DNA of 47,627 nt from Tropicimonas isoalkanivorans (GTDB lineage: Bacteria > Pseudomonadota > Alphaproteobacteria > Rhodobacterales > Rhodobacteraceae), in assembly GCF_900112335.1 (NCBI RefSeq), contig NZ_FOLG01000002.1, positions 173,173-220,799 on the forward strand, given 5' to 3'. The translations under genes and the position numbers were made by a program. This document shows positions 15,838 through 38,380 of the stretch, in pieces. Position 1 is the first letter of the stretch; every line of letters begins with the position of its first letter. Under the pieces are notes generated by a model. The model made no database searches, was not told the origin of the DNA, and saw only the letters and a program-made list of their open reading frames with translations.

Positions 15838-15884
15838 TCCTGCCTACTTGTGCTCGAAGCGCGCCATGCAGGAGGTTTCTGACC

Positions 15885-16666: not shown

Positions 16667-16681
16667 GGGAGGAAACGGAAA

Positions 16682-16885: not shown

Positions 16886-16893
16886 GTGTAACC

Positions 16894-18181: not shown

Positions 18182-18675
18182 GGAAGAACACAAGGAAATC
18201 AGGCGCGAAGGCCGCGCCTGCGCACCAGGCGGAGAGGATCGACGTCCTGGCCGAACTGGCGGCGCTGAAGGCGATGACGGTGCCCGAGTTGCAGGAGAAG
18301 TGGCAGGCCATCTTCGGGGAGCGCGCGCCGAACGCCAGCCGTGGCAACCTCGAGCTTCGGCTCGGCTACCGCATCCAGGAACTGGCGCATGGCGGGATGC
18401 GCCGCGAGACGCGCCGCACGCTCGATGCGCTGGCCGACGAGGTCATGAGCGGCAAGCTCGGCGGCATGGTTGCGGACCCGCGCAAGCCAGCGCCCGGCAC
18501 GAAGCTGGTCCGCGAGTGGGGCGGCGAAGAGCACATGGTCACCGTTCTGGCGGACGGCTTCGAATGGCAGGGCCGGGGCTTCAGGTCGCTCTCTGCCGCC
18601 GTCCGCGCGATCACCGGCGCACACTGGAATGGCTGGCGCTTCTTCGGGCTCGACCAGACCGGAGGCGCCCGATGA
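18178..18675 (+). CDS. DUF2924 domain-containing protein
   Basis: A 165-residue protein with DUF2924 features: LAALKAMTVPELQEKWQAIF, then SRGNLELRLGYRIQELAHGG, and a C-terminal GFEWQGRGFRSLSAAVRAI followed by HWNGWRFFGL. The C-terminal half resembles small DNA-binding folds of the RAMA type. DUF2924 genes are typically found beside serine recombinases in alphaproteobacteria, as here (ATGA overlap with the recombinase), so it likely assists integration or excision. Confidence 0.9.
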   Translation: MRKNTRKSGAKAAPAHQAERIDVLAELAALKAMTVPELQEKWQAIFGERAPNASRGNLELRLGYRIQELAHGGMRRETRRTLDALADEVMSGKLGGMVADPRKPAPGTKLVREWGGEEHMVTVLADGFEWQGRGFRSLSAAVRAITGAHWNGWRFFGLDQTGGAR

Positions 18676-19997
18676 CCCGAAAGAGCCAGACCGAACCGGC
18701 GCGCCGCCTGCGTTGCGCCATCTACACCCGTAAGTCGAGCGAGGAAGGGCTCGACATGGAGTTCAACAGCCTCGACGCGCAGCGGGAGGCCTGCGAGGCC
18801 TACATCGCCAGCCAGCGAGCCGAGGGGTGGGCCTGCCTGCGCGAGCGGTATGACGACGGCGGCTTCTCGGGCGGCACGCTGGACCGCCCAGCGCTGAAGC
18901 AGCTGATTACCGATGTCGAGGACGGGCTGGTCGACGTGGTCGTGGTCTACAAGATCGATCGTCTGAGCCGCGCGCTGATGGATTTCTCGAAGCTCGTCGA
19001 GATCTTCGACCGCCACGGCGTGACCTTCGTCTCCGTCACCCAGTCCTTCAACACGACCACGTCCATGGGCCGGCTGACGCTGAACATCCTGCTCAGCTTC
19101 GCCCAGTTCGAGCGCGAGGTCATCGGCGAGCGGATCCGCGACAAGGTCGCTGCCTCGAAGAAGAAAGGCATGTGGATGGGTGGCTACGTGCCGCTCGGCT
19201 ACGACGTGGTCGACCGCAAGCTGATCTTGAACGAGGCCGAGGCCGCGCAGGTCCGGACCATGTTCGAACTCTTCGCGCAGTCCGATTCCACCGCTGCGGT
19301 GATCCGGGAGCTGGACGCCCGCGGAATCCGGTCCAAGCGTGGCCGGCCCATCGACCGCGGGGCGCTCTACAAGCTGCTGCACAACCGCATCTACCGCGGC
19401 GAGATCACCCACAAGGACGAGACCTATCCCGGCATGCACGAGCCAATCATCGATTCGGAGTTGTGGGACGCCGCCCATGCCGTGCTGGCCGGCAACCGGA
19501 ACCAGCGGGCCGGACGCACCCGGAGCACCGAGCCGGCGCTGCTGCGCGGGCTGATCTTCACCGAGACCGGGGTCGCAATGACCCCGCACCACACCAAGAA
19601 GGGCAACAGGCGGTACTGTTACTACGTCTCGATGGACGTGATCCAGAAGCGGCCGACGGCCGAGCTGCGCGGGCCTCAGCGGCTGCCAGCGGCCATGGTG
19701 GAGGAAGCGGTCATCGGCGAGATCCGGAGGCTGCTGCGTACGCCGGAGATCATCGCGCGCACCGCGCGGGCCCTGAAGAGGGAGCGGCCCGACCTCGACG
19801 AGGGCACCGTGACCGCGGCGCTCACGCAATTCGACGATCTGTGGAAGGCGCTGATCCCCGCCGAGCAGGCCCGCGTCGTCCAACTGCTCGTGGCCCGCGT
19901 GACGGTGGGCGAAAACGGCCTCGACATCGACCTGCGCCATGACGGGCTCGGCGCGCTGGCGAGCCTGATGACGCCCGCGCGAGAGGACGCCGCCTGA
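18672..19997 (+). CDS. Large serine recombinase (phage integrase)
   Basis: A 441-residue serine recombinase. The resolvase domain (about 14-160) carries YTRKS with the nucleophile Ser22, YKIDRLSRAL, and FAQFEREVIGERIRDK. The recombinase domain follows (about 180-280, with RGALYKLLHNRIYRGE). The zinc-ribbon region is recognisable as LLRGLIFTETG but lacks cysteines, and the coiled-coil region is short, so it is smaller than many integrases of this class. It probably integrates and excises this phage. Its start overlaps the DUF2924 stop. Attachment sites cannot be identified from the window. Confidence 0.93.
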   Translation: MTRKSQTEPARRLRCAIYTRKSSEEGLDMEFNSLDAQREACEAYIASQRAEGWACLRERYDDGGFSGGTLDRPALKQLITDVEDGLVDVVVVYKIDRLSRALMDFSKLVEIFDRHGVTFVSVTQSFNTTTSMGRLTLNILLSFAQFEREVIGERIRDKVAASKKKGMWMGGYVPLGYDVVDRKLILNEAEAAQVRTMFELFAQSDSTAAVIRELDARGIRSKRGRPIDRGALYKLLHNRIYRGEITHKDETYPGMHEPIIDSELWDAAHAVLAGNRNQRAGRTRSTEPALLRGLIFTETGVAMTPHHTKKGNRRYCYYVSMDVIQKRPTAELRGPQRLPAAMVEEAVIGEIRRLLRTPEIIARTARALKRERPDLDEGTVTAALTQFDDLWKALIPAEQARVVQLLVARVTVGENGLDIDLRHDGLGALASLMTPAREDAA

Positions 19998-20380
19998 TGC
20001 CTGCGAACGACACAATCCGCGTTCATATCCCGCTCACGGTCCGCAAACGCGGCGGTCGCCCGCGTATCCTGCCGCCGAAGGACATCGAGACGTCGAACCC
20101 GCCGCCGGGTCAGGATCCCCGCGTGCTCCGCGCCATCGGCAGGGCATGGGCATGGCGGAAGCGGATGGAGCGCGGCGAGGTCACGACCATCGCCGATCTC
20201 GCCGCCGAGGAGGGACTTTCGGACCGCTATGTCAGCCGGCTTCTTCGCCTTGCATGGCTAGCGCCAGAAGTCCTCGAGCGGCTGGTCGTGCGCCGCGAAC
20301 CCTGTGCGATCAGCCTCTACGACCTCTGCTTCGTGGCATCGCTGCCATGGGACGAGCAACCAGGGCGGGTGTTAGGCTGA
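19997..20380 (+). CDS. Small HTH protein partnering the recombinase (127 aa)
   Basis: A 127-residue protein overlapping the recombinase stop (TGATG). The middle (TIADLAAEEGLSDRYVSRLL) is a clear ParB/KorB-like helix-turn-helix. The C-terminus (PWDEQPGRVLG) is short. It ends 3 bases from the end of the convergent DUF3883 gene. Likely a DNA-binding accessory factor of the integration module, perhaps a directionality factor, which is inference from position. Confidence 0.82.
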   Translation: MPANDTIRVHIPLTVRKRGGRPRILPPKDIETSNPPPGQDPRVLRAIGRAWAWRKRMERGEVTTIADLAAEEGLSDRYVSRLLRLAWLAPEVLERLVVRREPCAISLYDLCFVASLPWDEQPGRVLG

Positions 20381-21220: not shown

Positions 21221-21853
21221 GCTGCCAGGCTAGAGGCGCGATGTGCGTTTGTCATCAATGCCTTCGCTGAGCCGGCGCCGAGTGATCCGCCACCGCTACG
21301 CGTCGTTCTGCCAGCGCAACTATTGGATACGCCTCCTGCATGTTCGGTCTCTGTTTCGCTCGATAGCGATGGAAACAAGGCGCGCAGTTTTGGCGGCGTT
21401 GAGAGTCAGGCCATTGCAAAGGCGAGGAAATTTCCGACCGAACCGCAATCGGCGCGGTTCGCCCGACCAGAGACGAGAGGCCATTCAGAGACGGAAATCG
21501 CTGCGCACGCGCGTCTCAGCGGTTCGCACCCAACCGGCAAACGCCTTTGAAAACAGGAGAAAAACGCCACTCCAAGAACGGCCCGAACGCGTTCGAAAGG
21601 GTGATAGTGGCGGAGGGAAAGCGATACGCAAAAACTCCGCTCAGCGGGCAGGTTCAGATCCCGACTACTTGCCACGTTTCTCTGGGAATAGCGTCCGATA
21701 CGATTACTTTCTCTCCCTCTCGCCGGGTGCGTTCACGGCTCTGCGCTAGCCGCGGCGCCTTTGCGCAGGGCACCTCAAGACACTGACTTGCCTCTCTTTT
21801 TCTTTCACGCCTTCGTCCTTCTGCAGCCGCTGTGAGTTGCGAAGAAGGAGACG
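21221..21853. other. 633-bp gap without a supported gene
   Basis: The frames open here overlap each other and none has both a credible ribosome binding site and protein-like composition. It should hold the promoters of the divergent genes on either side. I see no tRNA, no long inverted repeat and no clear attachment site. A gttcagatccc stretch (21652-21662) looks like a tRNA T-loop but has no tRNA around it. Confidence 0.6.
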
Positions 21854-22216: not shown

Positions 22217-23104
22217 ATGGAAAACGACAGGTCGGAACTTCGCTGGGGCGTCGAGCAACGCCTTGAGTTCATAGAGTTCCGCCTGTTCTGGGAGGGACAT
22301 GTGAACCGCAGCGATCTGATGGACCAGTTCGGGGTATCGGTGAACCAGGCGTCCACCGACCTGAACCGCTACATCGGCTTCGCACCGGACAACATGGTCT
22401 ACGACAAGAGCGCGCGGACCTATGTCCGCGGCTCGGACTTCAAGGCGCAGTTCCTCGAGCCCGATGCGAGCCGCTACCTCGCGCAGCTGCGGTCACTCTC
22501 TGACGGGATCCTCGACCGGGAGGACTCCTGGATAGCCAATCTCCCGCCCTACGCGTCCGCCCCGACGCCAGTACGTGGCGTCAACCCGGTGACGCTCCGC
22601 TCGATCGTTGGTGCCATACGCCGGTCAGAGGCGGTCGAGGTGAAGTACCAGTCACTGTCCAACCCGGAGCCGCGCTGGCGGTGGATCGCGCCCCACGCAA
22701 TCGCGTTCGACGGCTTCCGCTGGCACACGCGAGCGTTCTGTCTGACTGACGAATGCTTCAAAGACTTCCTGTTGTCCCGGATGCTGAAGATTCGAGGTGC
22801 ACGAGAGACCGAAGCCTCGGCCGCCGACGACAACGAGTGGCACTCCGATGTCACGCTGGAGATTGCCCCCCACCCCGACCTCTCGGATACACAAGCAAAG
22901 GTCATTGCGCTCGATTACGGCATGCGAAGCGGCAAGGCGCAGATTAAGGTCCGACGCGCGCTTCTCTACTACGCGCTCAAGCGGCTTGGCCTCGACACAG
23001 ATCCTGCGGCGAGGGCGCCTCAGGATCAGCAGATCGTCCTAACCAATCGCGAAGAGATCATCGGTGGTTCGCGAAGAAGCCGTAGTCAGGAGACTACGGC
23101 ATGA
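22217..23104 (+). CDS. WYL-domain transcriptional regulator, BrxR/CapW-like
   Basis: A 295-residue protein with a winged helix at the N-terminus (about 1-90; LRWGVEQRLEFIEFRLFWEG, then DLMDQFGVSVNQASTDLNRY), a WYL ligand-binding domain (about 125-200; RWIAPHAIAFDGFRWHTRAF) and a C-terminal dimerisation region. Length and layout match BrxR/CapW regulators, which sit at the head of BREX, CBASS and other defence operons, repress them and respond to a nucleic-acid-like signal. It starts the defence operon here and overlaps a short frame at its stop (ATGA). Confidence 0.88.
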   Translation: MENDRSELRWGVEQRLEFIEFRLFWEGHVNRSDLMDQFGVSVNQASTDLNRYIGFAPDNMVYDKSARTYVRGSDFKAQFLEPDASRYLAQLRSLSDGILDREDSWIANLPPYASAPTPVRGVNPVTLRSIVGAIRRSEAVEVKYQSLSNPEPRWRWIAPHAIAFDGFRWHTRAFCLTDECFKDFLLSRMLKIRGARETEASAADDNEWHSDVTLEIAPHPDLSDTQAKVIALDYGMRSGKAQIKVRRALLYYALKRLGLDTDPAARAPQDQQIVLTNREEIIGGSRRSRSQETTA

Positions 23105-23178
23105 TCGAGCTATTCAATCACTTCGGCGCCATTGGCCATAAACTGACAGGTTCTTTCAAGGAGCGTGACTTTGGGTAA
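23101..23178 (+). CDS. Possible 25-aa coupling peptide
   Basis: An ATG overlapping the regulator's stop (ATGA) opens a 25-codon frame (MIELFNHFGAIGHKLTG...). It carries the aaggag site of the next gene and stops 8 bases past that gene's TTG start. Ribosomes leaving the regulator could use it to reach the DUF262 gene. It may not make a functional peptide. Confidence 0.35.
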   Translation: MIELFNHFGAIGHKLTGSFKERDFG

Positions 23179-25093
23179 GCAAGCTGCATTCAAGACAAAC
23201 CCGGTCAGCCTCGAAGAGCTTCTGCGCCAGAGCGGGAGCGGCAAGATCCAGTTGCCGGACTTCCAGCGTAGCTGGGTTTGGGACGAGGAACGTATCAAAG
23301 GGCTGATCGCCTCGATCTCGCAGGCGTTTCCAGTCGGCGCCTTGATGACGCTCGAGGTCAAGGCTGGCGCAGCGGATACCTTCGCGCGTCGTCCCATTCA
23401 GGGCGCAGATGTGGCAGTTGGAGACGGTGCGCCGGATCAGCTCTTGCTTGACGGCCAGCAGCGCATGACCTCGCTGTACCAAACCTGCCTTCGCCGCGAG
23501 GTGGTGCAGACGGTGACGCCTCGCCTCAAGCTCGTTAAGCGGTGGTTCTACATCGACATTCGAAAGGCGATGAACCCAGCGGAGGACCGCGAAAACGCAA
23601 TCATCTCTGTGCCGGAGGATCGGCGGATCAAATCGGACTTCGACCGGAAGATCGACCTAGATCTCTCTACACCGGAGCTCGAATACATGAACCTCATGTT
23701 CCCGCTGAACCAGGTGTTTGACTGGGACGAATGGCAGGACGGCTTCAACGAGTACTGGCTCGAGAACGATCCGGAGACCCGCAAACTGTTCAAGCCTTTC
23801 AAAGATGAGGTTCTTCAGAACTTCAAGTCCTACCAGCTGCCCGTGATCGCGCTGAGCCCGGAAACCTCGCACGAGGCAGTTTGTCTAGTCTTTGAAAAGG
23901 TGAACACTGGCGGCAAGCCGCTTGACGCATTCGAGCTTGTCACAGCGATGTATGCGGCTCGTGGCCACCGTCTTCGCGACGACTGGCTCGGCGCTGACGG
24001 GCAGCCGGGGCTACAAACAAGGCTTCAGCTCTACGGCCGCGCCGCGGAGCAAAAGTTTGGTGTGCTCGAGAAGGTGGCTGCGACCGATGTGCTTCAGGCC
24101 ATCGCCCTGCTGCACGGAGTTGAGAAGCGCGCAGACGAGATCGCGGCCGGACGCAAGGAGTCCGAGCTCTCCGCCGTTCGCGCCACCCGTCAGTCGTTGC
24201 TCGATCTGCCGCTCGAGGCCTATCTGAAACACCGCGCCGCAATTGAGGAAGGGTTCAAGACGGCGGCACGCTTCCTCCGCCAGAACTATATCTATCGCGT
24301 CCTCGACTTGCCCTACCAAGGCCAGCTTGTCCCCTTCGCCGCGATCCTTGCATTAATTGGGCCCAAATTCGACCACGCGGCAGTGCGTGATCAACTTGCC
24401 CGATGGTTCTGGTGCGGGATCTTCGGAGAGCTTTACGGTTCCGCGATAGAATCCCGGTTCGCAAAGGACGTGCTTGAGGTTCCTGCCTGGCTCGACGGAG
24501 GGCCCGAGCCGAGCACGATTACAGACGGACACTTCCGTCCGGAGCGACTCCGTACGCTGCGCACCCGGCTTTCGGCCGCTTACAAGGGCATCCACGCTCT
24601 AATGATGGCCGAAGGTGCGCGGGACCTTCGCTCCGGCCAGCACTTCAAGGACACGGTGTTCTTCGACGAGTACGTCGATATTCACCACATTTTCCCGCAG
24701 GACTGGTGCAAGAAGCAGAAGATCGAGCCCAAGGTATTCGATACCGTCGTCAACAAGACACCGCTGAGCTACAAGACGAACCGCATCCTCGGTGGCGTTG
24801 CGCCTTCGGTATACCTAGAACGACTAGAGACGGGCGCAAAGGATACGCCGCCGATCGCACGAGATGCGCTCGACGAGTATCTGGCCTCGCACGCGATGGA
24901 CCCTGACCTCCTGCGTGCGGATGATTTCACAGGCTTCATGGCGGATCGCGAAGACCGTCTGCTCGCCATGATCTCACGTGCCACCGGTCACACAATCACC
25001 CGCTATGACGCCGCGCCCGAGGAGGGCGAGGATGTTCTGCAGGACGACGAAGGCTTCGATCTGCCCGACCCGGACGCAGAGGAGGCCGCCTGA
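23171..25093 (+). CDS. GmrSD-like DUF262/DUF1524 protein (type IV restriction-like)
   Basis: A 640-residue single-chain protein. The N-terminal DUF262 domain has LPDFQRSWVWDEERI (28-42) and LDGQQRMTSL (93-102), the NTP-handling motif of GmrS and ParB-like folds. The C-terminal DUF1524 domain is an HNH-type nuclease with VDIHHIFP (His505, His506) and later NKTPLSYKTNRILGG. GmrSD and BrxU enzymes of this design cut modified phage DNA using NTP. I prefer the TTG at 23171, seven bases after aaggag, over the GTG at 23165, which is too close. The C-terminus is very acidic. It is the first enzyme of the defence operon. Confidence 0.88.
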   Translation: MGKQAAFKTNPVSLEELLRQSGSGKIQLPDFQRSWVWDEERIKGLIASISQAFPVGALMTLEVKAGAADTFARRPIQGADVAVGDGAPDQLLLDGQQRMTSLYQTCLRREVVQTVTPRLKLVKRWFYIDIRKAMNPAEDRENAIISVPEDRRIKSDFDRKIDLDLSTPELEYMNLMFPLNQVFDWDEWQDGFNEYWLENDPETRKLFKPFKDEVLQNFKSYQLPVIALSPETSHEAVCLVFEKVNTGGKPLDAFELVTAMYAARGHRLRDDWLGADGQPGLQTRLQLYGRAAEQKFGVLEKVAATDVLQAIALLHGVEKRADEIAAGRKESELSAVRATRQSLLDLPLEAYLKHRAAIEEGFKTAARFLRQNYIYRVLDLPYQGQLVPFAAILALIGPKFDHAAVRDQLARWFWCGIFGELYGSAIESRFAKDVLEVPAWLDGGPEPSTITDGHFRPERLRTLRTRLSAAYKGIHALMMAEGARDLRSGQHFKDTVFFDEYVDIHHIFPQDWCKKQKIEPKVFDTVVNKTPLSYKTNRILGGVAPSVYLERLETGAKDTPPIARDALDEYLASHAMDPDLLRADDFTGFMADREDRLLAMISRATGHTITRYDAAPEEGEDVLQDDEGFDLPDPDAEEAA

Positions 25094-25180
25094 ATGGATG
25101 CCATCCACAAAGGCGCTGAACTTCACGACGCGTGGCCTGCAGCCAAGCCGGCTATTGGGCATATTGAGGACAGGCCATGA
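25094..25180 (+). CDS. Possible 28-aa frame between defence genes
   Basis: An ATG directly after the DUF262 stop opens a 28-codon frame (MDAIHKGAELHDAWPAAKP...) that ends in a four-base overlap with the helicase start (ATGA). It bridges the only gap between these two genes, so it may couple their translation or be a remnant. No family recognised. Confidence 0.3.
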   Translation: MDAIHKGAELHDAWPAAKPAIGHIEDRP

Positions 25181-28100
25181 CGAAGCTGGAGGACATTAGA
25201 AATGGGGCCTCAGTTGCAGGCCTCGTTCCGAACCAAACGGTCGAAGCGATCTCGGTGGAATGGATTGGAGATCAGGCGATCAATGTCGTGTACCGAGCAT
25301 CGAACGGCTCTGTCGCGGAAACGACGCTCTACCGCGATGACGAGCACCGGCTCGGGATTGAAAGCCGTGGACGGAAATGGTCGTTCGACGCTGATGGTGC
25401 TCTGCTCCGCTTGGTGACAGAGGCAAACCGCATCAAGCTCGCTCATTTCTTCGACCCCTACCTGGCGATTCACACCAGCCTTGTGGATCCATTGCCGCAC
25501 CAAATTTCGGCGGTGTACGGCGAAATGATCCCGCGTCAGCCGCTCAGGTTCCTGCTTGCGGACGATCCCGGCGCGGGAAAAACGATCATGGCCGGCCTTT
25601 TGATCAAGGAGTTGATCGCCCGCAGTGATCTCGAGCGCTGCCTCGTGGTGGCACCGGGCAGTCTTGTTGAGCAATGGCAAGATGAACTTGGCGAGAAGTT
25701 CGGACTGGAGTTCGACATCCTGACCCGGGACATGATCGAGAGCTCGAGATCAGGGAACCCGTTCAACGACAACAACCGCCTTATCGCACGCCTCGACGTG
25801 CTGTCGCGTAACGATGAGCTTCAGGAGAAGCTGACAGCGTCTACCGAGTGGGACCTGATTATCGCCGACGAGGCCCACCGCATGTCGGCGACCTATTTCG
25901 GCAACGAGGTCAAGTATACCAAGCGCTACCAGCTCGGTCAGCAGTTGAGCCGAGCTTGCCGGCACTTCCTGCTGATGTCGGCAACGCCACACAACGGCAA
26001 AGAAAAAGACTTCCAACTGTTCATGGCCCTGCTGGATGGAGATCGCTTCGAGGGTCGCTTCCGTGACGGCGTGCACGTCGCTGACGTCGAGGACATGATG
26101 CGGCGCCTTACGAAGGAGGAGCTTCTCCGCTTCGACGGCCGGCCGCTATTTCCCGAGCGGCGTGCCTATACCGTTAAGTACGAACTCTCCCCTCAAGAGG
26201 CCGAACTTTACACGGCTGTCACCGAATATGTTCGGAACGAAATGAACCGCGTGCAGCGCTTCGCTGAGGACGATGGCAAGAAACGGAACAATGTGGGCTT
26301 TGCGCTGCAGATCTTGCAGCGCCGTCTCGCATCCAGCCCGGCAGCCATCTACCAGTCCCTGAAGCGGCGTCGCGAGCGGCTGGAGAATGAGCTCTCTGAG
26401 GCGAAGCTGGCCACAAGAAGCACCCCATCGTCCTTGAGCAAAACGTCTATCAGCGACGAGATGCTGAGAAACCTCGATGAGTACGGCCAGGACGAAATCG
26501 ATGATCTTGAGGAACTGATCTCCACCGGGGCCACCACGGCAGAAACCGTGGAGCAACTGGAACTGGAAGTTCAGACCCTCAAAGGACTTGAGAGCATGGC
26601 ACTCGAAGTCCTTCGCTCAGGCAAGGACACGAAATGGCAGCAGCTCGATCGGATTCTCGATGACGATTTGATGCTCGATCCGGACGGCTATCGACGCAAG
26701 CTGATCATCTTCACGGAGCCCAAAGACACCCTCGAATACCTACGTGAAAAGGTCGTTGCACGGCTCGGAAGGCCCGATGCGGTGGACGTCATTCACGGTG
26801 GCGTATCCCGTGAAGAAAGGCGGAAGGTCGTAGAGCGGTTCATGCAGGATCGCGATCTCCTGGTGTTGATCGCAAACGATGCGGCCGGCGAAGGCGTGAA
26901 CCTTCAGCGCGGCCATCTCATGGTAAACTATGATCTGCCGTGGAATCCCAACAAGATCGAACAGCGGTTTGGACGCATCCACCGGATCGGGCAGACGGAA
27001 GTCTGCCATCTGTGGAATCTCGTGGCGAAAGACACCCGAGAGGGCGAAGTTTATGCTCGGCTTCTGGAAAAGCTGGAGGCCGCCCGCGAAGCTCTCGGCG
27101 GCCGTGTGTATGACGTGCTCGGGGAGCTCTTCGAAGAGCGGGCGCTAAAGGACCTTCTCTTCGAGGCAATTCAATATGGCGAGCAGGACGAGGTGAAGGC
27201 GCGCCTCTTCCAGACAGTGGATGGCGCGGTCGACCAAAGCCACCTCCTCCACCTGTTACAGAAACGGCAACTCACCAGCGACACCATGCCGGAGGCGCGG
27301 GTTCAGGAGTTGCGGCTCGAGATGGAGCGAGCCGAAGCTCAGCGCCTGCAACCCCATCACATCCAGAGCTTCTTCGTCGAGGCATTCAAGCGGCTCGGCG
27401 GCCAGATCAAGCGCCGGGAAGAAGGACGGTGGGAAATCACCCATGTTCCGCTCAGCGTGCGGGAGCGTGACCGCCAAATCGGCTCAGGTGCGCCGCTTCA
27501 GAAGAAGTACGAGCGCATCTGCTTCGAAAAGGGCAAGATCAACCAGCAGCCTGTCGCGGCCTTCGTCTACCCCGGGCACCCGCTGCTCGAGGCTGTCATC
27601 AGCCTGGTGCGCGAGGAGAACGATCACCTGATGAAACAAGGGGCTGTCCTGGTCGATGACACCGACGACGGCACCGACGTCTCCGCCCTGTTCCTGCTCG
27701 AACACAGCGTGCAAGACGGCCGCCCGACCAGCTCCGGCAACGCCAACGTGATTTCGCAGAAGCTGCAGTTCGCGGCGATCGACGAGGCAGGCAACGTGAC
27801 CAACGCCGGGATCGCGCCCCACCTCAACTTGCGGCCCGCAACACCGGAGGAAATCGGCGGTGTCGAGGATGTCCTGAACGCCGACTGGCTGCGGGGCGAT
27901 CTCGAGAAGAAGGTCGTTCAGTTCGCCACCGTCGAACTCGCGCAAGGTCACGTTGCGGAAGTACGCGGGCGCCGGCTACCCGAGATCGACAAGGTCGAGC
28001 AGGAGGTGAAGGCCCGCCTCAAGAAAGAGATCAACTACTGGGACTCGCGCGCGTTCGAACTGAAGGAACAAGAGAAGGCCGGCAAGAAGACCCGCCTCAA

Positions 28101-28686
28101 CTGGCAGAACGCGCAGCGTCGCGCGGAAGATCTGGCGGAGCGCCTAAAGCGTCGCCTGGAGCTGATCGACCAGGAGCGTTTCATCTCGGCCCAGCCTCCC
28201 CGCGTGCGCGGCGGGATGGTTGTGTTGCCCCGCGGCCTCCTGCGCGAGCGCATGCCAGCCGAGATGGCCGATGTGGGGTCGGGCTTCTCGGAGGATCCGG
28301 TCGCCCGCCGCGAGATCGAGCTGAAGGCGATGGAGGCGGTCATGGCCGTCGAGCGCGAACTCGGGAACCGGCCGGAGGACGTGTCGGCCCAGAAGGTCGG
28401 CTATGACATCGCGTCCTACGATCCGAACGTCGACCACATGCGCTTCATCGAGGTTAAGGGACGGATCGACGGCGCGGACACGGTGATGATCACCCGGCAG
28501 GAGGTCATCACCTCGCTCCACGAGCCCGAGAAGTTCATCCTCGCCATTGTCCAGGTCGGCGACGGCTACGTGCATGCGCCCCGCTATCTCCGCGGCGCGC
28601 TGGACACGCGAGAGCCGCCTTTCGACCAGAACGCCATTCAATTCAACATCAATCGCCTGCTTGAGCGGGCAAAGGCACCTGCATGA
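25177..28686 (+). CDS. SNF2-type helicase with C-terminal DUF3883 domain
   Basis: A 1169-residue superfamily 2 ATPase of the SNF2/RapA kind: motif I DDPGAGKT (129-136), motif II ADEAH (230-234), motif III LMSATPHNGK (about 266-275), and motif VI QRFGRIHRIGQ (from about 596). A long helical middle follows. The C-terminus is a DUF3883 nuclease-like domain with GYDIAS (Asp1077) and FIEVKGR (Glu1092, Lys1094). DISARM class 1 uses an SNF2 helicase (DrmD) with a methyltransferase; this protein is comparable but I cannot assign it to that family. It probably translocates on DNA to recognise or destroy foreign DNA. ATGA overlap with the ASCH gene. Confidence 0.88.
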   Translation: MTKLEDIRNGASVAGLVPNQTVEAISVEWIGDQAINVVYRASNGSVAETTLYRDDEHRLGIESRGRKWSFDADGALLRLVTEANRIKLAHFFDPYLAIHTSLVDPLPHQISAVYGEMIPRQPLRFLLADDPGAGKTIMAGLLIKELIARSDLERCLVVAPGSLVEQWQDELGEKFGLEFDILTRDMIESSRSGNPFNDNNRLIARLDVLSRNDELQEKLTASTEWDLIIADEAHRMSATYFGNEVKYTKRYQLGQQLSRACRHFLLMSATPHNGKEKDFQLFMALLDGDRFEGRFRDGVHVADVEDMMRRLTKEELLRFDGRPLFPERRAYTVKYELSPQEAELYTAVTEYVRNEMNRVQRFAEDDGKKRNNVGFALQILQRRLASSPAAIYQSLKRRRERLENELSEAKLATRSTPSSLSKTSISDEMLRNLDEYGQDEIDDLEELISTGATTAETVEQLELEVQTLKGLESMALEVLRSGKDTKWQQLDRILDDDLMLDPDGYRRKLIIFTEPKDTLEYLREKVVARLGRPDAVDVIHGGVSREERRKVVERFMQDRDLLVLIANDAAGEGVNLQRGHLMVNYDLPWNPNKIEQRFGRIHRIGQTEVCHLWNLVAKDTREGEVYARLLEKLEAAREALGGRVYDVLGELFEERALKDLLFEAIQYGEQDEVKARLFQTVDGAVDQSHLLHLLQKRQLTSDTMPEARVQELRLEMERAEAQRLQPHHIQSFFVEAFKRLGGQIKRREEGRWEITHVPLSVRERDRQIGSGAPLQKKYERICFEKGKINQQPVAAFVYPGHPLLEAVISLVREENDHLMKQGAVLVDDTDDGTDVSALFLLEHSVQDGRPTSSGNANVISQKLQFAAIDEAGNVTNAGIAPHLNLRPATPEEIGGVEDVLNADWLRGDLEKKVVQFATVELAQGHVAEVRGRRLPEIDKVEQEVKARLKKEINYWDSRAFELKEQEKAGKKTRLNWQNAQRRAEDLAERLKRRLELIDQERFISAQPPRVRGGMVVLPRGLLRERMPAEMADVGSGFSEDPVARREIELKAMEAVMAVERELGNRPEDVSAQKVGYDIASYDPNVDHMRFIEVKGRIDGADTVMITRQEVITSLHEPEKFILAIVQVGDGYVHAPRYLRGALDTREPPFDQNAIQFNINRLLERAKAPA

Positions 28687-29090
28687 ATATCGAAAAAGCT
28701 CTCATCGTTGACGAACCTTGGATCAGCAAGATCTTGAGCGGCGCCAAGACTTGGGAAATGAGGAGCACATCAGCCAAGCAGCGGGGCTGGATTGGCCTGA
28801 TCAAGAAAGGCAGCGGCCACGTCGTTGGTGTCGCGAAGATGACTGGAGTCGACGGCCCGCTCTCTGATCAGAAGATGATCGATAACTCCGACAAGCATCA
28901 CATTCCTTCCGACATATTTCTCGCAGGGAAATTTTCGAAGCACAGATACGCCTGGATCATGTCCGGTGCGGTTCGTCTGAGACGGCCCGTTCCCTACCGG
29001 CACAAAAGCGGTGCGGTTATCTGGGTCGCGCTCGATCAGAACGTCTCGGATGCCTTGGCGCAAGACGAAGCCGTAAAGGCCCTAGCATGA
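28683..29090 (+). CDS. ASCH-domain protein
   Basis: A 135-residue protein with the ASCH/PUA-like start ALIVDEPWISKILSGAKTWE, then MRS and RGWIGLIKKGSG, and a beta-rich remainder. ASCH and related EVE domains bind RNA or modified bases, and some ASCH proteins act on nucleosides. Packed by ATGA overlaps between the helicase and the methyltransferase, it may read the modification or a nucleic-acid signal for the system. That role is inference. Confidence 0.82.
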   Translation: MNIEKALIVDEPWISKILSGAKTWEMRSTSAKQRGWIGLIKKGSGHVVGVAKMTGVDGPLSDQKMIDNSDKHHIPSDIFLAGKFSKHRYAWIMSGAVRLRRPVPYRHKSGAVIWVALDQNVSDALAQDEAVKALA

Positions 29091-31906
29091 CCACCCCCTA
29101 CAAGAAGAAACTCATCGAAGTTGCCATTCCGCTCGAGGCGATCAATGCGGCGTCGGCGCGGGAGAAGTCGATCCGGCATGGGCATCCCTCGACGCTGCAT
29201 CTGTGGTGGGCGCGGCGGCCGTTGGCGGCGTGTCGGGCGGTGCTGTTCGCGCAGCTGGTGGACGACCCATCAAGCCATCCGGACAAGTTCCCGACCGAGG
29301 AGGTCTTGGAGGCCGAGCGCAAACGGCTGTTCCAGATCATCGAGGACCTGGTGAAGTGGGAGAACTCGACCAACGAGGAGGTGCTGGAGCGCGCGCGGGC
29401 AGAGATCCGCGCCAGCTGCGGCGGCGAGCTGCCCCCGGTTTATGACCCGTTCTCGGGCGGCGGGTCGATCCCGCTGGAGGCGCAGCGGCTGGGGCTGCCC
29501 GCCTATGGGTCCGACCTGAACCCGGTGGCGGTGATGATCGGCAAGGCGATGATCGAGATCCCGCCGAAGTTCAAGGACATGGAACCGATCCATCCGGGCG
29601 GGAAGGAGCGCAACCACTACCGCAACGCCGAAGGGCTCGCGGAGGACGTGAAATACTACGGCGAGTGGATGCGCGAGAAGGCGTGGGAGCGCATCGGGCA
29701 TCTCTATCCGCAGGTGGACCTGCCGAGCGAGTATGGCGGCGGCAAGGCGACTGTGATCGCCTGGATTTGGGCGCGGACGGTGCCGAGCCCGGACCCCGCT
29801 TTTTCGGATGTGCAGGTGCCGATTGCGTCGAGCTTTCTACTGAGCTCGAAGTCCGGAAAAGAAGCTTGGATTGAGCCGCTCGTGGATCGGCAAAGTAAGA
29901 CAATCAGATACCGCATACGGCAAGGCGGCACGAAGGCAGAGATCGAGAAAGCCAAAAGCGGCGTGAAGCTGGGCCAGGCAACATTTCGATGCCTAATGTC
30001 AGAGGCTCCAATCTCTGGCCAGTACGTCGACAAGATGGCCGACAAAGGCAAGATGGGCACTACGCTGATCGCGGTTGTCGCAGAGGTAAAGCGAAACAGA
30101 ATATTTCTTGAGCCAACTTCTGTTGACGTGCCACTCATGCGGAAGCAAGTCGGCGACTACCTCGAGGGTAGCGATCTCGACGTGCTGGAAGTTCCATGCC
30201 GGGGGACATTTGCCAGCAACGCTCAAGGACGCTACTACGGTTTCAAGACCTTCAGGGATTATTTCACCGATCGGCAATTGGTCGCACTGTCAACTTTCTC
30301 GGAACTCGCCTCAGAGGTCCAAGAGAAAATTCTGCGCGACGCTCAAGCCAGCCGTTTGGCTGATGACAATGCGAGCCTCCGATCTGGAGGAACTGGGGCC
30401 TTGGCATATGCTCAGGCCATAGCAGTTTACCTAAGCTTTGGAGTCAGCCGACTTTCTGATATTCAAAACTCCCTTTGCAGATGGGAGTCCTCGAAGACCC
30501 AGGTTCGAAACCTATTTGGCCGACAGGCGATCCCAATGATGTGGGATTTTGGTGAGAACAATGTGTTTGGTGATGCGGCCGGTGACTTCAGGACCAGCCT
30601 TGGAACAATCGTCAAAGTGATCGAACGATTTGCTCCGGCAAAGTCGGGCACGATGAAGAATTCTGACGCTCAGACGGTTGAGTATCCAGACGGCGTCGTG
30701 ATTTCCACAGACCCACCATATTACGATAATATTGAGTACGCAGACCTCTCAGATTTCTTTTATGTCTGGTTGCGGAAGGCGCTCAGGCATATTGAGCCCG
30801 AAGTGTTGAGTGTTCTATCCACGCCTAAGTCTGAAGAGCTTGTAGCTACGCGATATAGGCACGGCAGCCAAGAAGCTGCCGAATCCTTCTTTCTCGAAGG
30901 CATGCGCAAGGCTGTAACGAACATGGCGGCGCACTCGTCAACTGACTTTCCAGCGACGATCTATTATGCATTCAAGCAAAGCGAGATTGACAAGGAGGGC
31001 ATCAGTTCCACTGGGTGGGCAACCTTCCTGCAGGCGGTGGTTGAAGCCGGGTATGCGGTGGTCGGCACTTGGCCTATGCGGACTGAAATGGCCAACCGCA
31101 TGGTAGCCTCTGGCACAAATGCTCTCGCGAACTCAGTCGTCCTCGTCTGCCGAAAGAAGGTCGCTACGGCTGACACCATCACTCGCGCAGAGTTCATCCG
31201 AGCCTTGAAACGCGAACTCCCGCCAGCCATCGCCGAGCTTCAGGCCGCCAACGTCTCCCCCGCCGACATGCCGCAATCGGCCATCGGCCCCGGCATGGGT
31301 GTCTTCTCGCGCTACAAGGCTGTGCTGGAGGCCGACGACAGCCCGATGACGGTCAAGACCGCGCTGCAGCTGATCAATGCCGAGCTCGACGAGTTCCTGA
31401 ATGACCTGCATGGCGAGTTCGACGCCGACACCCGCTTTGCCGCGACCTGGTTCGAGCAGCACGGCACCGACAAAGGCGACTACGGCGCGGCCGACAACCT
31501 CGCCCGCGCGCGGGGCATCTCGGTCGAGAGCGTGAAGCATGCCGGGATCGTCGACAGCTCGGCCGGCAAGGTCCGCATCCTCAAGCGCGCAGAACTGGAC
31601 CCGGACTGGGATCCGGCCGAGGACGATCACCTTACGATCTGGGAATGCTGCCAGCACCTGATCCGCGTGCTGGAGAACGACGGCGAATACGCCGCGGCCC
31701 TGCTGCTGAAGAAGCTGGGCCCGGACCGTGCCGAGATGGTCAAGGACCTCGCCTATTACCTCTACGACGTCTGCTCGAACAAGCGGCAGGACGCGAAGGA
31801 GGCGACCTCCTACAACGGGCTGATCGCGGTGTGGACGGACCTGACGCGGCTCGCCGCGACGATCCGGATCGAAGATGTGAACCGCCAGACGGCGATGGAT
31901 ATTTGA
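29087..31906 (+). CDS. DUF1156 DNA methyltransferase
   Basis: A 939-residue methyltransferase. The N-terminal DUF1156 part (about 1-110) has the conserved HPSTLHLWWARRPLAACRA. SAM motif I is DPFSGGGSIPLEA (from Asp120) and the catalytic motif is DPPYYDN (from Asp542), consistent with N6-adenine or N4-cytosine methylation. GC is 73% in 29461-29520, 43% in 30421-30480, 42% in 30721-30780 and 72% in 31501-31560. The central part, with the presumed target-recognition region and DPPY, therefore appears to come from another source. It likely marks self DNA for the operon's nucleases. Confidence 0.9.
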   Translation: MTTPYKKKLIEVAIPLEAINAASAREKSIRHGHPSTLHLWWARRPLAACRAVLFAQLVDDPSSHPDKFPTEEVLEAERKRLFQIIEDLVKWENSTNEEVLERARAEIRASCGGELPPVYDPFSGGGSIPLEAQRLGLPAYGSDLNPVAVMIGKAMIEIPPKFKDMEPIHPGGKERNHYRNAEGLAEDVKYYGEWMREKAWERIGHLYPQVDLPSEYGGGKATVIAWIWARTVPSPDPAFSDVQVPIASSFLLSSKSGKEAWIEPLVDRQSKTIRYRIRQGGTKAEIEKAKSGVKLGQATFRCLMSEAPISGQYVDKMADKGKMGTTLIAVVAEVKRNRIFLEPTSVDVPLMRKQVGDYLEGSDLDVLEVPCRGTFASNAQGRYYGFKTFRDYFTDRQLVALSTFSELASEVQEKILRDAQASRLADDNASLRSGGTGALAYAQAIAVYLSFGVSRLSDIQNSLCRWESSKTQVRNLFGRQAIPMMWDFGENNVFGDAAGDFRTSLGTIVKVIERFAPAKSGTMKNSDAQTVEYPDGVVISTDPPYYDNIEYADLSDFFYVWLRKALRHIEPEVLSVLSTPKSEELVATRYRHGSQEAAESFFLEGMRKAVTNMAAHSSTDFPATIYYAFKQSEIDKEGISSTGWATFLQAVVEAGYAVVGTWPMRTEMANRMVASGTNALANSVVLVCRKKVATADTITRAEFIRALKRELPPAIAELQAANVSPADMPQSAIGPGMGVFSRYKAVLEADDSPMTVKTALQLINAELDEFLNDLHGEFDADTRFAATWFEQHGTDKGDYGAADNLARARGISVESVKHAGIVDSSAGKVRILKRAELDPDWDPAEDDHLTIWECCQHLIRVLENDGEYAAALLLKKLGPDRAEMVKDLAYYLYDVCSNKRQDAKEATSYNGLIAVWTDLTRLAATIRIEDVNRQTAMDI

Positions 31907-31919
31907 GGGCAGTTTTCAG

Positions 31920-35249
<3,330 letters not shown>

Positions 35250-35270
35250 AGCCGCCGCTGCCCGATACAT

Positions 35271-35321
35271 TCACCCCACCTCCGCCCCCCAGAACGACGT
35301 CTGGTCAGCGGCGAAGTAGCC
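35271..35321 (-). pseudogene. Displaced 3' end of a DUF2793 tail gene
   Basis: Read leftward, this 51-bp stretch encodes GYFAADQTSFWGAEVG and a stop. The intact tail gene ends GYFAADQTSFWGAKIG (38381-38431). The two DNA stretches agree at 43 of 51 positions. Upstream of Gly the similarity ends abruptly. Both copies have the same orientation and bracket the HelD-like helicase gene, so this looks like the old end of a tail gene left behind when the helicase cassette arrived. Confidence 0.8.
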
Positions 35322-35354
35322 ACGCGCGATCAATGAGCGATAAGGCCGAAGTTA

Positions 35355-38294
35355 TTGGAGAGACTTCAACGACGTATTCTTATCGGTTTCTTGGCTGATC
35401 CGTTCGGTCGGTTTCCTCGTGCAATGGAACTGGACGGCGACAGTCTTCGGATCATAAGCCGCGGCCGAGTTGCTTCGATATCGCTGCAATCGATAGCCAG
35501 TGCGCCTTCTCTCCGAAAGGGAATGCTTGGAACCGCACTGACCGTCCGTTCAGACAGAGCTGAATATCTGACGTTGAAGGGGGCGAACCATCAAGCTGCC
35601 CATCAATTTTCAGAACGGATCAAAGAAGCGTGGTCTCGCTTCAATCTCGCGGCCCTCGAGAAAGAAGCGGCTCACCTGGACAGAATCCGCGCTGAGGTCA
35701 TGTTGCTGGCGGCGCCGCTCCGATATCCCGCCGCTTGTCAGATCGCGCCCCTCCTGGATGACGCCCGAGCACTGGATGCTTCGCTGCTGTCGAAGCTGAA
35801 TGCCGAAGCCATCGGCCCCGAGGCCGTCGAGCGCATTGCGCCCGTCCGAAAATTCGCAGCTGAGCCGCGCGCGTTGCGGGCGAATGGCATAGCCGTATTC
35901 GTCGCCTCTGAACTGGACCGCTGGAAGGAGTTTTTCGACACGATTGAAAGCAAGCCGCTGACGCCGGAGCAGCGCCTCTCGGTTGTTGTCGATGAGGACG
36001 CGACGCTCGTCCTCGCTGGGGCGGGCTCGGGAAAGACCAGCGTCATCACCGCCAAGGCTGCCTACCTCGTCACGGCTGGCATCCGCCAGCCAGAAGAAAT
36101 CCTGCTTCTGGCCTTCGCGAAGAATGCGGCGGAGGAGATGTCGGAACGGGTCGAGGCACGATCCGGCGTGCCCATCGTCGCGCGAACCTTCCATGCGATT
36201 GCCTACGACATCATCGGCATCGTGGAAGGGTCGAAGCCCGCCTTGGCCGAACATGCCACCGACGACATGGCCTTCACCAACCTGATCAAGCAGATCCTGA
36301 AGGACCTGGTCCACCAGCTGTCAGCGGTGTCGCGGGCGATCATCCAATTCTTCGCGCATTTCCTGGTCGAACCGAAGACTGAATGGGACTTCCAGACCAA
36401 GCACGACTTCTACACCCATCTGGAAACCCAGGACCTGCGCACGCTGCAGGGCGAAAGGGTCAAGAGCTACGAAGAGCTACAGATCGCCAATTGGCTGTAT
36501 GAGAACGGCGTCGAATACGAGTACGAGCCGGTCTACGAACACAAGATCGCCGAAACCGGAAGACGCGACTACCAGCCGGACTTCCGCCTCATCGAGAGCG
36601 GCATCTACATTGAGCATTTCGGGGTGCGGCGCCAGAAGATGGCCGACGGAAGCGAACGGCTGATCACCGCGCCCTTCGTGGACCGCGACGAATACCTTGC
36701 TGGCATGGACTGGAAGCGGCAGGTCCACGCCGAGCATGACACCACTCTGATCGAGACCTACAGCTATGAGCGGCAGGAAGGGCGTCTGCTGACCGGGCTT
36801 GCCGAAAAGCTGGCGCCGCATGTCACCCTGAAACCCCGACCGGTCGACACGATCTATGACCGGATCGTCGAGTTAAAGCAGGTCGATGACTTCTCGAAGC
36901 TGCTCGGAACCTTTCTGCGCAAGTTCAAGAGCGGCGGTTACAGCTTGCAGGACTGCGAGACCAAATCCGAACAGATGAAGCTGGGCAAGCGCGCCCGAGC
37001 GTTCCTCGACGTCTTCGCGCCGGTTTTCGAAGAATACCAGAAGCGCCTCGGTGGCCGGATCGACTTCGAGGACATGATCCTGCGCGCCGCCCACTATGCT
37101 GAAACCGGCCGCTACAAGAGTCCGTTCCGCCACATCTTGGTCGACGAGTTCCAGGACATCTCTCAAAGCCGAGCCCGGTTGGTGAAGGCGCTGAAGGCTC
37201 AGCATCCGGATGTGCGCGTCTTCGCCGTTGGTGACGACTGGCAGTCGATCTTCCGCTTCGCAGGGTCCGATATCCATCTGATGCGTCATTTTGGGCGAGA
37301 GTTCGGCGGCAGCTTCGATGGTGAGGCTAGCGTGCACCGGACTGTCGATCTCGGGCGCACCTTCCGGTCGGTCGATCAGATCGCCTTCGCCGCCCGAACC
37401 TTCGTTCTGCGGAACCCCGCCCAGATCGACAAGAAGATCGTCCCGGCGGGGACCGCGACCGAACCGGCAATCAGGGTCGTGACCGTGTCAAAGGGCGAAG
37501 ATGAGGTAAAACTAAACGAGGTCCTTGCCTCCCTGTCCGCTGCCGTGCCGCCGGAAGATAAACCAGCGACGGTTCTGCTCCTTGGCCGCTACCGCTTCAT
37601 CGAACCAGACATGCCGGATCTTCGGCGCCGTTTTCGGCGTCTGAAGATCAGCTTCAAGACCATCCATGCCTCCAAGGGGCTTGAAGCCGACCACGTCATC
37701 CTGCTGAACGCCGACAGTGGGCGCACGGGGTTCCCGTCAGAGATCGTCGATGACCCCCTCCTGTCTCTGGTATCGCCGGAAGAGGAGGCATTCCAGAACG
37801 CCGAGGAGCGGCGCGTGATGTATGTCGCGATGACCCGAGCCCGCCACACGCTGACAATACTCGCCTCGAATGCAAGGCCGTCGTCCTTCGTGACCGAGCT
37901 TCGCAAAGACCCCGCCTACGGGATCTCGACAGCACCCGGAGCTGAACCCGAAGCGCACGCCTGCGGAGAATGCGGTGGCCGATTGCTGGGCGTGACAGGA
38001 AAGGATGGACGCATCTGGTATCGATGCGAGCACGTTCAGCACTGCGGAAACCTACTGCCCACCTGCGCTTCCTGTGGCACAGCCCTGCCGCGCCACGTAG
38101 ATGGAACCTCCGAGGTTCGATGTGGTTGCGGCGCCAGCTATCCTACCTGCCCGGAATGCGAAGATGGCTGGCTAGTCGAACGCAGCGGTCCATACGGACG
38201 TTTCCTCGGTTGCGTTCGATATCCGTCGTGTGTCGGTAAGGCACAGATATCTTCGTCACGGCGGAATGCACCGTCAGCGAGGACAGGTCGTTAG
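35355..38294 (+). CDS. HelD-like UvrD/Rep helicase with nuclease-like insert and zinc-finger tail
   Basis: A 979-residue SF1 helicase. The N-terminus resembles the helicase IV (HelD) N-terminal domain. Motif I is LAGAGSGKT (to Thr228), motif II is DEFQD (597-601), and VMYVAMTRAR is near the end of the core. Between motifs lies an insert of the PD-(D/E)XK type, with YQPDFRL (Asp409) and IYIEHFG (Glu420); the usual Lys is replaced. The last 110 residues carry several Cys pairs (CGECGG, CASCG, CPECE), like topoisomerase zinc fingers. The TTG start is uncertain: an ATG at 35333 reads MSDKAEVIGETS in another frame and would need a one-base shift to join. Confidence 0.85.
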   Translation: MERLQRRILIGFLADPFGRFPRAMELDGDSLRIISRGRVASISLQSIASAPSLRKGMLGTALTVRSDRAEYLTLKGANHQAAHQFSERIKEAWSRFNLAALEKEAAHLDRIRAEVMLLAAPLRYPAACQIAPLLDDARALDASLLSKLNAEAIGPEAVERIAPVRKFAAEPRALRANGIAVFVASELDRWKEFFDTIESKPLTPEQRLSVVVDEDATLVLAGAGSGKTSVITAKAAYLVTAGIRQPEEILLLAFAKNAAEEMSERVEARSGVPIVARTFHAIAYDIIGIVEGSKPALAEHATDDMAFTNLIKQILKDLVHQLSAVSRAIIQFFAHFLVEPKTEWDFQTKHDFYTHLETQDLRTLQGERVKSYEELQIANWLYENGVEYEYEPVYEHKIAETGRRDYQPDFRLIESGIYIEHFGVRRQKMADGSERLITAPFVDRDEYLAGMDWKRQVHAEHDTTLIETYSYERQEGRLLTGLAEKLAPHVTLKPRPVDTIYDRIVELKQVDDFSKLLGTFLRKFKSGGYSLQDCETKSEQMKLGKRARAFLDVFAPVFEEYQKRLGGRIDFEDMILRAAHYAETGRYKSPFRHILVDEFQDISQSRARLVKALKAQHPDVRVFAVGDDWQSIFRFAGSDIHLMRHFGREFGGSFDGEASVHRTVDLGRTFRSVDQIAFAARTFVLRNPAQIDKKIVPAGTATEPAIRVVTVSKGEDEVKLNEVLASLSAAVPPEDKPATVLLLGRYRFIEPDMPDLRRRFRRLKISFKTIHASKGLEADHVILLNADSGRTGFPSEIVDDPLLSLVSPEEEAFQNAEERRVMYVAMTRARHTLTILASNARPSSFVTELRKDPAYGISTAPGAEPEAHACGECGGRLLGVTGKDGRIWYRCEHVQHCGNLLPTCASCGTALPRHVDGTSEVRCGCGASYPTCPECEDGWLVERSGPYGRFLGCVRYPSCVGKAQISSSRRNAPSARTGR

Positions 38295-38380
38295 AAGTCC
38301 GCCGCCGCCTGGCAAAATTCGTGCTCCGGCATCCGTACAGGGCCGTCCTCTGGGTGTTGTGGGGCCATGGCGCGCCGCAC

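What the first reader, a model, noticed from the sequence alone, without database searches (positions are those of the whole stretch)
22217..38294. Seven-gene plus-strand defence operon of mixed BREX/DISARM-like parts
Seen: a BrxR/CapW-like WYL regulator, a single-chain GmrSD-like enzyme, an SNF2 helicase with a DUF3883 nuclease-like end, an ASCH protein, a DUF1156 methyltransferase, a HEPN-DUF499 ATPase and a HelD-like helicase, all on one strand with mostly four-base overlaps. Known: DISARM class 1 pairs an SNF2 helicase with a methyltransferase, BREX has BrxR regulators and may carry the GmrSD-type BrxU. Here no PglZ, BrxL, DrmA, DrmB or DrmC is seen. My recollection is that DUF499, DUF1156 and such helicases recur together. 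Whether this full combination has been described I cannot check. Inference: a modification-dependent anti-phage system combining self-marking, a translocating nuclease, type IV restriction and possible RNA cleavage.
Basis: partly seen in the sequence, partly recalled or inferred. Interest (0 to 1): 0.87.

Follow-up and report, generated by a model that had tools for sequence, protein, structure and literature searches.

The report
Prophage-borne Hma phage-defence operon
This looks like a known kind of bacterial anti-phage system (Hma, a DNA-marking and DNA-cutting machine) with two extra genes tucked in, sitting inside virus DNA in a bacterial genome; the seventh gene looks like a later, separate addition.

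Summary
All seven genes are present, but they are not an undescribed BREX/DISARM mixture. Genes 3, 5 and 6 match HmaA, HmaB and HmaC over nearly the whole profiles: the Hma system, also called Type-1 BR, in its HEPN-fused form. Catalytic motifs are intact. Gene 1 is a CapW/BrxR homologue. GmrSD and ASCH are accessories in slots that vary between Hma loci: 64 of 77 carry cargo between hmaA and hmaB. Gene 7, helicase-IV-like, appears to be a later insertion: a 61-bp remnant of a phage tail-gene end separates it from hmaC, and in Maliponia aquimaris hmaC lies 43 bp from that tail gene with no helicase between. The operon is prophage cargo beside an att-like site at a tRNA-Ser 3' end. Other prophages of this genome carry type I or type III R-M-like genes beside the same recombinase. 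In 34 selected genomes, 19 of 56 related recombinases have a DNA methyltransferase within 10 kb downstream on the same strand (0 of 56 upstream; 0.3 expected). New member of a known kind; the phage-borne operon slot is the more interesting part. Nothing was tested at the bench.

The parts
21522..21616 (.). att-like site: 95-bp exact copy of C20:220810-220904, which there runs into the 3' end of a tRNA-Ser(TGA)
   Evidence: AGTGGCGGAGG at its end also seen in L004, L109 and L119
21854..22060 (+). small AlpA-like gene (name by eye; no PHROGs match) that precedes the operon; homologue in L038 and L056
22140..22216 (+). putative promoter/operator region of the WYL gene, with AAGT-N10-AGTT
   Evidence: binding untested
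22217..23104 (+). CapW/BrxR-family WYL regulator
   Evidence: Pfam WYL; phmmer to solved CapW 9c5g 5.1e-66 and BrxR 7t8k 4.2e-45
23165..25093 (+). GmrSD-like protein: GmrSD_N, motif DGQQR at residue 96 and HHIFP at 507
   Evidence: same position in L009, L038, L056
25177..28686 (+). HmaA: SNF2 helicase with C-terminal DUF3883 nuclease-like domain (D1077, E1092, K1094)
   Evidence: (1593 bits)
28683..29090 (+). ASCH protein, cargo of the hmaA-hmaB slot, 4-base overlaps on both sides
29087..31906 (+). HmaB: DUF1156 DNA methyltransferase (DPFSGGGS at 120, DPPYYDN at 542)
   Evidence: (1210.6 bits)
31920..35249 (+). HmaC: N-terminal Swt1-like HEPN (R93/H98) + DUF499 AAA+ ATPase
   Evidence: (954 bits)
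35268..35328 (-). remnant of the 3' end of a DUF2793 phage tail gene (82% to 38378-38438)
35355..38294 (+). DNA-helicase-IV-like UvrD protein with Zn ribbon; separate later insertion, not counted as part of the system
   Evidence: absent at this junction in L038; 0 of 80 loci with a homologue above 60 bits
38381..39457 (-). intact DUF2793 phage tail-type gene bounding the cargo
18178..20380 (+). large serine recombinase (18672-19997 by the crude gene caller) with two small neighbours (18178-18675, 19997-20380)

Best explanation
Shown by sequence: a complete HmaA-HmaB-HmaC core with intact motifs, a CapW/BrxR-type first gene, a GmrSD gene before hmaA, an ASCH gene overlapping hmaA and hmaB by four bases each, and a helicase gene that entered later. 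Inferred working: HmaB methylates host DNA (probably adenine); HmaC, a BrxC/ORC-like AAA+ ATPase, assembles on unmarked DNA and licenses HmaA to translocate and cut it; the HEPN domain is a backup RNase used when the DNA arm is blocked. Less supported inference: GmrSD attacks phages with modified bases, ASCH reads a modified base, the WYL protein keeps the operon low until infection, and the prophage profits by excluding competing phages.
For: Full-length PADLOC matches: HmaA 1593, HmaB 1210.6, HmaC 954 bits. Motifs conserved in all non-gapped rows: helicase GAGKT and DEAH 77 of 77; nuclease D1077/E1092/K1094 73 of 73; HEPN R and H 77 of 77; ATPase K251, D362, E363 78 of 78. CapW/BrxR homology; WYL upstream of hmaA in 39 of 69 loci that show 1.2 kb upstream; ATAGTT in 27 of 40 upstream regions against 0.88 simulated. 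Cargo in the hmaA-hmaB slot in 64 of 77 loci. Prophage genes on both sides without a gap in the window.
Against: No activity was measured. PMC8565338 calls HmaB a predicted m5C methyltransferase, whereas PADLOC and PMC12839542 say adenine. WYL is absent upstream in 30 of 69 loci, and a generic palindrome score barely beat shuffles (7.58 against 7.11). No Pfam C-terminal GmrSD domain was matched. ASCH is in only 6 of 77 other loci, so its link to Hma is loose. The exact combination GmrSD-before-hmaA plus ASCH is in 0 of 80 other loci. Both contig ends are scaffold gaps, so the prophage may be incomplete.
Confidence: 0.8

Rival explanations
1. One integrated seven-gene system, including the helicase-IV-like protein, whose parts all act together.
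For: All seven genes lie on one strand with gaps of 105 nt or less.
Against: Tail-gene scar between hmaC and the helicase; hmaC lies 43 bp from the tail gene without helicase in L038; 0 of 80 loci have the helicase above 60 bits, 70 of them showing at least 3 kb beyond hmaC.
Confidence: 0.06
2. A DISARM or BREX system with lost parts.
For: HmaA cross-matches DrmD (408.9 bits) and BrxH (317.4 bits) models; the BR systems are proposed kin of Type-3 BREX (PMC12839542).
Against: DrmD equivalog score 383.5 is below its cut-off of 610; HmaA model scores 1593; no PglZ, BrxL or DrmB match in the seven proteins (capped tables for the helicases).
Confidence: 0.03
3. Decayed or silent cargo in a broken prophage.
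For: Both contig ends are scaffold gaps and the window shows no recognised head genes beside the tail genes (I did not search for every head gene); a tail-gene scar shows past rearrangement.
Against: The six ORFs from WYL to hmaC are open, with conserved motifs.
Confidence: 0.08

Closest known systems
Hma system (PADLOC; PMC8565338) = HEPN-fused Type-1 BR system (PMC12839542)
   Same: HmaA, HmaB, HmaC content, nuclease-fused SNF2 helicase, DUF1156 methyltransferase, HEPN-DUF499 ATPase
   Different: Carries WYL, GmrSD and ASCH in addition and lies in prophage DNA
Hma-embedded candidates (HEC; Payne et al. 2024 preprint, known only through citing papers)
   Same: Extra defence-type genes placed between or beside Hma genes; the GmrSD protein has partial matches to HEC-05 and PDC-M55C models
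   Different: ASCH has no PADLOC match; GmrSD stands before hmaA here
EVE-associated COG1743-DUF499-SNF2 operons of archaea (PMC7641849, passages)
   Same: A small PUA/ASCH-superfamily protein next to the same three genes
   Different: Archaeal EVE there; an ASCH protein inside the operon here
CapW/BrxR regulators (PMC9122588, PMC9122601; passages)
   Same: Sequence family and first-gene position
   Different: The word Hma does not occur in either text, nor DUF499 in PMC9122601; operator here is only a motif
DISARM DrmD / BREX BrxH helicases
   Same: SNF2-type helicase
   Different: Below the DrmD equivalog cut-off; the other DISARM/BREX parts were not found among the seven

Membership tests
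Hma | HmaA helicase, HmaB methyltransferase and HmaC ATPase adjacent | tested here: met
   1593, 1210.6 and 954 bits over nearly whole profiles; order A-(ASCH)-B-C
Type-1 BR (PMC12839542) | C-terminal PD-(D/E)XK-type nuclease on the helicase | tested here: met
   NOV_C 2.9e-20; D..ExK residues kept in 73 of 73 non-gapped rows (residue assignment mine)
Type-1 BR (PMC12839542) | N-terminal TUDOR domain of the helicase; RRM-like C-terminus of DUF499 | not tested
   no structure was predicted
Type-2 / Type-3 BR | DUF3780 gene (Type 2) or PglZ gene (Type 3) | tested here: not met
   no such Pfam match in the seven proteins nor in the 20 other window ORFs scanned; not every ORF of the window was scanned
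BREX | PglZ and BrxC/BrxL set | tested here: not met
   seven proteins
DISARM | DrmA, DrmB, DrmC with DrmD or DrmMI | tested here: not met
   DrmD 383.5 bits against cut-off 610; no DrmB/DrmC match shown for the seven proteins
GmrSD / type IV | N-terminal DUF262 and C-terminal HNH in one chain, modified-DNA cleavage | tested here: inconclusive
   GmrSD_N 1e-27; HNH only as motif HHIFP (motif recalled); no activity test
CapW/BrxR | wHTH-WYL-WCX protein that binds a palindrome in its own promoter | tested here: inconclusive
   homology met; operator-like motif; binding not testable here
Anti-phage function | protection against phage | not testable with these tools
   needs bench work

The most novel reading that the evidence does not exclude
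In this phage group the DNA around the attachment site (recombinase - cargo - att - cargo - DUF2793 tail gene) is an exchange slot for whole R-M-type operons, so a polylysogen collects a battery of different systems: here Hma, a type I set, a second type I-like set, a type III-like pair and, beside another prophage, a DISARM/Druantia-like operon under the same kind of WYL regulator. Phages may swap complete methylating defence operons by recombination, leaving tail-gene end scars.
Probability: 0.5. Interest if true: 0.58.

Novelty: new member of a known kind. Interest (0 to 1): 0.36.

Why it matters
It places the locus in the Hma / Type-1 BR kind instead of a new BREX-DISARM hybrid and takes the helicase off the parts list. 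It offers three testable points: CapW/BrxR-type control of many Hma operons, a cargo slot between hmaA and hmaB with freely changing occupants, and a phage attachment-end hot spot for complete R-M-type operons, which would help explain how lysogens gather many restriction systems.

Tried and rejected
DISARM/BREX membership: rejected. Helicase as a member: rejected. Host gene transfer agent as the neighbour of the operon: disfavoured, since the tail gene beside it is one of six copies at 76-100% identity in this genome while a seventh copy is only 47% identical (that the seventh is the GTA was not tested). Generic palindrome search upstream of the WYL genes: little above shuffles; the motif was seen by eye in the listing and then counted on the same 40 sequences, so that count is not an independent test. 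Slot clustering from raw six-frame ORFs was spoilt by out-of-frame ORFs and was redone. Circular contig: no exact overlap of the window's ends. A second copy of the DNA right of the att-like site: none found, so tandem prophages and an excised circle cannot be told apart. Papers: searches were seen as listings with starts of abstracts; (Hma with BrxR) listed 2 papers and (prophage recombinase/R-M hot spot) 9; I did not open the papers, so no claim is made that these points are unpublished. Liu et al. 2024 (PMC11232893) is not held and is known only as cited in PMC12839542. The Payne et al. 2024 preprint was not seen.

Selections and dropped rows: the 80 loci are the best 80 of 289, lean to close relatives and include near-duplicates (for example L018/L019, L014/L017, L021/L058). 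L020, L065 and L081 were left out of the slot count. Slot cargo is a crude ORF call (60 aa or more) and some short ones (L036, L040, L051) may be spurious. In one search I kept 42 of 81 PF02384 rows (31 bits or more, less one fragment), 106 of 145 PF01555 rows (best by E-value) and 2 of 3 PF06634 rows; reading the dropped rows by eye adds none to the same-strand counts at 10 kb but would add four to 'upstream, opposite strand' and one to 'downstream, opposite strand'. The 56 recombinase sites are the rows above about 525 bits, one of them partial (G032:C27). Stretches fetched but not analysed: L162-L171, most of L088-L107, L123-L161. No structure prediction was run.
Full report
Observation. 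The seven ORFs exist at the stated places. Pfam gives WYL, GmrSD_N, SNF2/Helicase_C + NOV_C, ASCH, DUF1156, HEPN_Swt1 + DUF499, and a UvrD-type helicase with a Topo Zn ribbon. Two of six junctions are four-base overlaps (28683-28686 and 29087-29090); the others are gaps of 60, 83, 13 and 105 nt. All seven are open, with G+C 0.55-0.62, lower than most of the window.

Identity of the core. Against PADLOC the third, fifth and sixth proteins score 1593 bits (HmaA, residues 1-1168), 1210.6 (HmaB, 6-937) and 954 (HmaC, 166-1104). The DISARM DrmD equivalog model gives 383.5 bits against a cut-off of 610. Hma was named in PMC8565338 (passages). Similar operons were noted before as HEPN-DUF499 systems with an SNF2-DUF3883 helicase (PMC3710099, passages) and next to EVE proteins in archaea (PMC7641849, passages). 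PMC12839542 renames them BREX-related (BR) systems; Type 1 often has the HEPN-fused ATPase, in 1370 of 2446 taxa (passages; sections 29, 33 and part 1 of section 35). The core is therefore known in kind.

Conservation. A scan of genome contigs with HmaB gave 289 relatives, of which the best 80 were kept. On alignments of these with the window, HmaA Walker A (GAGKT) and DEAH are invariant in 77 of 77 rows; the nuclease D1077, E1092 and K1094 are kept in 73 of 73 non-gapped rows (4 gapped); HEPN R93 and H98 in 77 of 77 non-gapped HmaC rows (2 gapped); FGGGKTH and D362/E363 in 78 of 78 non-gapped rows (1 gapped). For HmaB 22-24 of 81 rows are gapped at the motifs because only the best stretch was aligned; the others keep DPF at 120-122 and DPPY at 542-545. 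This supports working enzymes; it does not prove activity. Which base HmaB methylates is open: PMC8565338 says m5C, PADLOC and PMC12839542 say adenine.

Accessory genes. Between hmaA and hmaB 13 of 77 loci have no cargo (the two genes abut or overlap within 10 bases), and 64 of 77 carry at least one plus-strand ORF by a crude call. Occupants fall into many families: a protein of about 1,000-1,500 aa in 18 loci (the one tested is TmtA-like), ASCH proteins in 6 loci, many singletons, among them one PDC-S21 match. The window's ASCH is 81-85% identical to three of the six and 45-51% to the other three, which are longer; it is related to solved proteins 1wk2 and 2dp9. Close GmrSD relatives (above 1300 bits) stand before hmaA in 3 of 80 loci (L009, L038, L056); weaker ones (63-88 bits) lie in the A-B slot of L037 and L042 and beyond hmaC in L016. 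None of the 80 loci has both GmrSD before hmaA and ASCH. Extra defence genes embedded in Hma loci are a described phenomenon (HEC), known to me through citing papers (passages).

Regulator. The first protein is a CapW/BrxR homologue (9c5g 5.1e-66, 7t8k 4.2e-45). A WYL gene precedes hmaA in 39 of 69 loci that show at least 1.2 kb upstream, and is absent in 30; 8 further loci were too short upstream (2 of them still show it) and 3 lack a usable hmaA. In 40 upstream regions (38 Hma loci, the window, and L119, which belongs to another operon) ATAGTT occurs in 27 against a mean of 0.88 in first-order simulations, AACTAT or ATAGTT in 34 against 2.17, and AANT-N10-AGT[TA] in 7, the window among them, against 0.28. 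The motif was chosen after looking at the same sequences, and some are near-duplicates. A generic palindrome score hardly exceeded shuffles (7.58 against 7.11). Autorepression is inferred.

Gene 7. A 61-bp stretch at 35268-35328 repeats, at 82% identity, the 3' end of the tail-type gene DUF2793 whose intact copy ends at 38381. In L038 (Maliponia aquimaris) the order is AlpA-like, WYL, GmrSD, hmaA, a 107-aa gene, hmaB, hmaC, and after 43 bp DUF2793 and the same tail genes; no helicase lies between. None of the 80 loci has a homologue above 60 bits; 70 of them show at least 3 kb beyond hmaC. I conclude that the helicase came in later. 'HelD-like' fits E. coli helicase IV (NCBIfam PRK11054, 426.5 bits, below its cut-off of 543) more than the RNA-polymerase factor HelD (35.3 bits).

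Prophage setting. Left of the operon are a serine recombinase with a phage-integrase match (phrog_95), an S24/CI-type repressor and phage early-type genes; right of it DUF2793, a GTA-TIM tail gene and an endolysin. The tail gene has five further copies at 76-88% identity in this genome and one at 47%. The window has no N and is bounded on both sides by runs of 10 N. At 21522-21616 lies a 95-bp exact copy of C20:220810-220904, which runs into the 3' end of a tRNA-Ser(TGA). The end AGTGGCGGAGG is also present beyond the cargo of two sibling recombinases (L004, L109) and before the C29 WYL operon (L119). The window thus seems to contain an att site between recombinase and operon, as in tandem prophages or an excised circle; the scaffold gaps prevent a choice, and a second copy of the DNA to its right was not found. 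That the exact 95 bases reflect assembly k-mer overlap is possible. Six of the 80 Hma loci (L016, L026, L038, L047, L049, L052) have matches to this prophage's recombinase, tail or early genes nearby; L056 shares the DUF3883 and AlpA-like neighbours; L048, L062 and L063 match only the repressor.

Other cargo. In the same genome the recombinase is followed by a type III methyltransferase (594 bits) and a weakly matching restriction-type protein (L109), by HsdR, HsdM and HsdS-type proteins (L004), and on C34 by a second type I-like set (N6_Mtase 334 bits; the other two genes by weak similarity). A fifth recombinase (C20:33839) has no methyltransferase match downstream. On C29 a WYL gene with DruE-like, DpdE-like and DrmMI-like proteins stands on the DUF2793 side of a prophage; no recombinase was found between. 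In 34 genomes chosen for a strong recombinase match (64 of 198 family genomes had one at E 1e-60) 19 of 56 recombinases have a DNA methyltransferase domain (PF02384, PF01555 or PF06634) within 10 kb downstream on the same strand, against 3 of 56 on the opposite strand, 0 of 56 upstream same strand, 1 of 56 upstream opposite strand, and 0.3 expected from uniform density. Four of the 19 are in the window's own genome, the window included. Sites near contig ends were not removed; 37 of 56 sites show no such domain; other defence families were not counted.

Mechanism. Shown: gene content, motifs, boundaries. Inferred from published family models: DNA marking by HmaB, AAA+-licensed translocation and cutting by HmaA, a HEPN backup RNase. 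Inferred with less support: ASCH as reader of a modified base, GmrSD as a second layer against modified phages, WYL derepression on infection, benefit to the prophage. The motif names DGQQR, HHIFP and DPPY are recalled as family motifs.

Verdict. New member of a known kind, interest 0.36. The boldest reading that the evidence leaves open is a phage attachment-end slot for exchanging whole R-M-type operons (probability 0.5).

Noticed in passing
56 recombinase sites in 34 family genomes: DNA methyltransferase domains within 10 kb downstream on the same strand at 19 of 56 sites, 0 of 56 upstream: a possible hot spot for R-M-type operons.
   Followed up: partly
L111:384-12633 with L119:19584-20000 (contig C29 of the host genome): A WYL gene followed by DruE-like, DpdE-like and DrmMI-like proteins beside another prophage: a DISARM/Druantia-like composite that may deserve its own look.
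   Followed up: partly
L108:10107-10598: A second, partial DUF2793 copy about 9 kb from the intact one in a sibling prophage, perhaps another recombination scar.
   Followed up: no
window 20384-21220 (-): Stand-alone DUF3883/NOV_C gene between recombinase and the att-like site; relatives beside Hma in L016 and L056.
   Followed up: partly
window 15848-17799: Low-G+C stretch (about 49%) with two ORFs without Pfam matches, between repressor and recombinase.
   Followed up: no
L018, L023, L045 and 15 other loci, hmaA-hmaB slot: A protein of about 1,000-1,500 aa fills the slot in 18 loci; the one tested (L023) is TmtA-like.
   Followed up: partly
window 35355-38294, about residues 330-540 of the protein: A stretch inserted in the UvrD core has, by eye, a PD-(D/E)XK-like look (QPDF at 407); untested.
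   Followed up: no
window ends, C20:173163-173172 and 220800-220809: The window is exactly one contig between two 10-N scaffold gaps, so its neighbours in the scaffold may not be true neighbours.
   Followed up: yes
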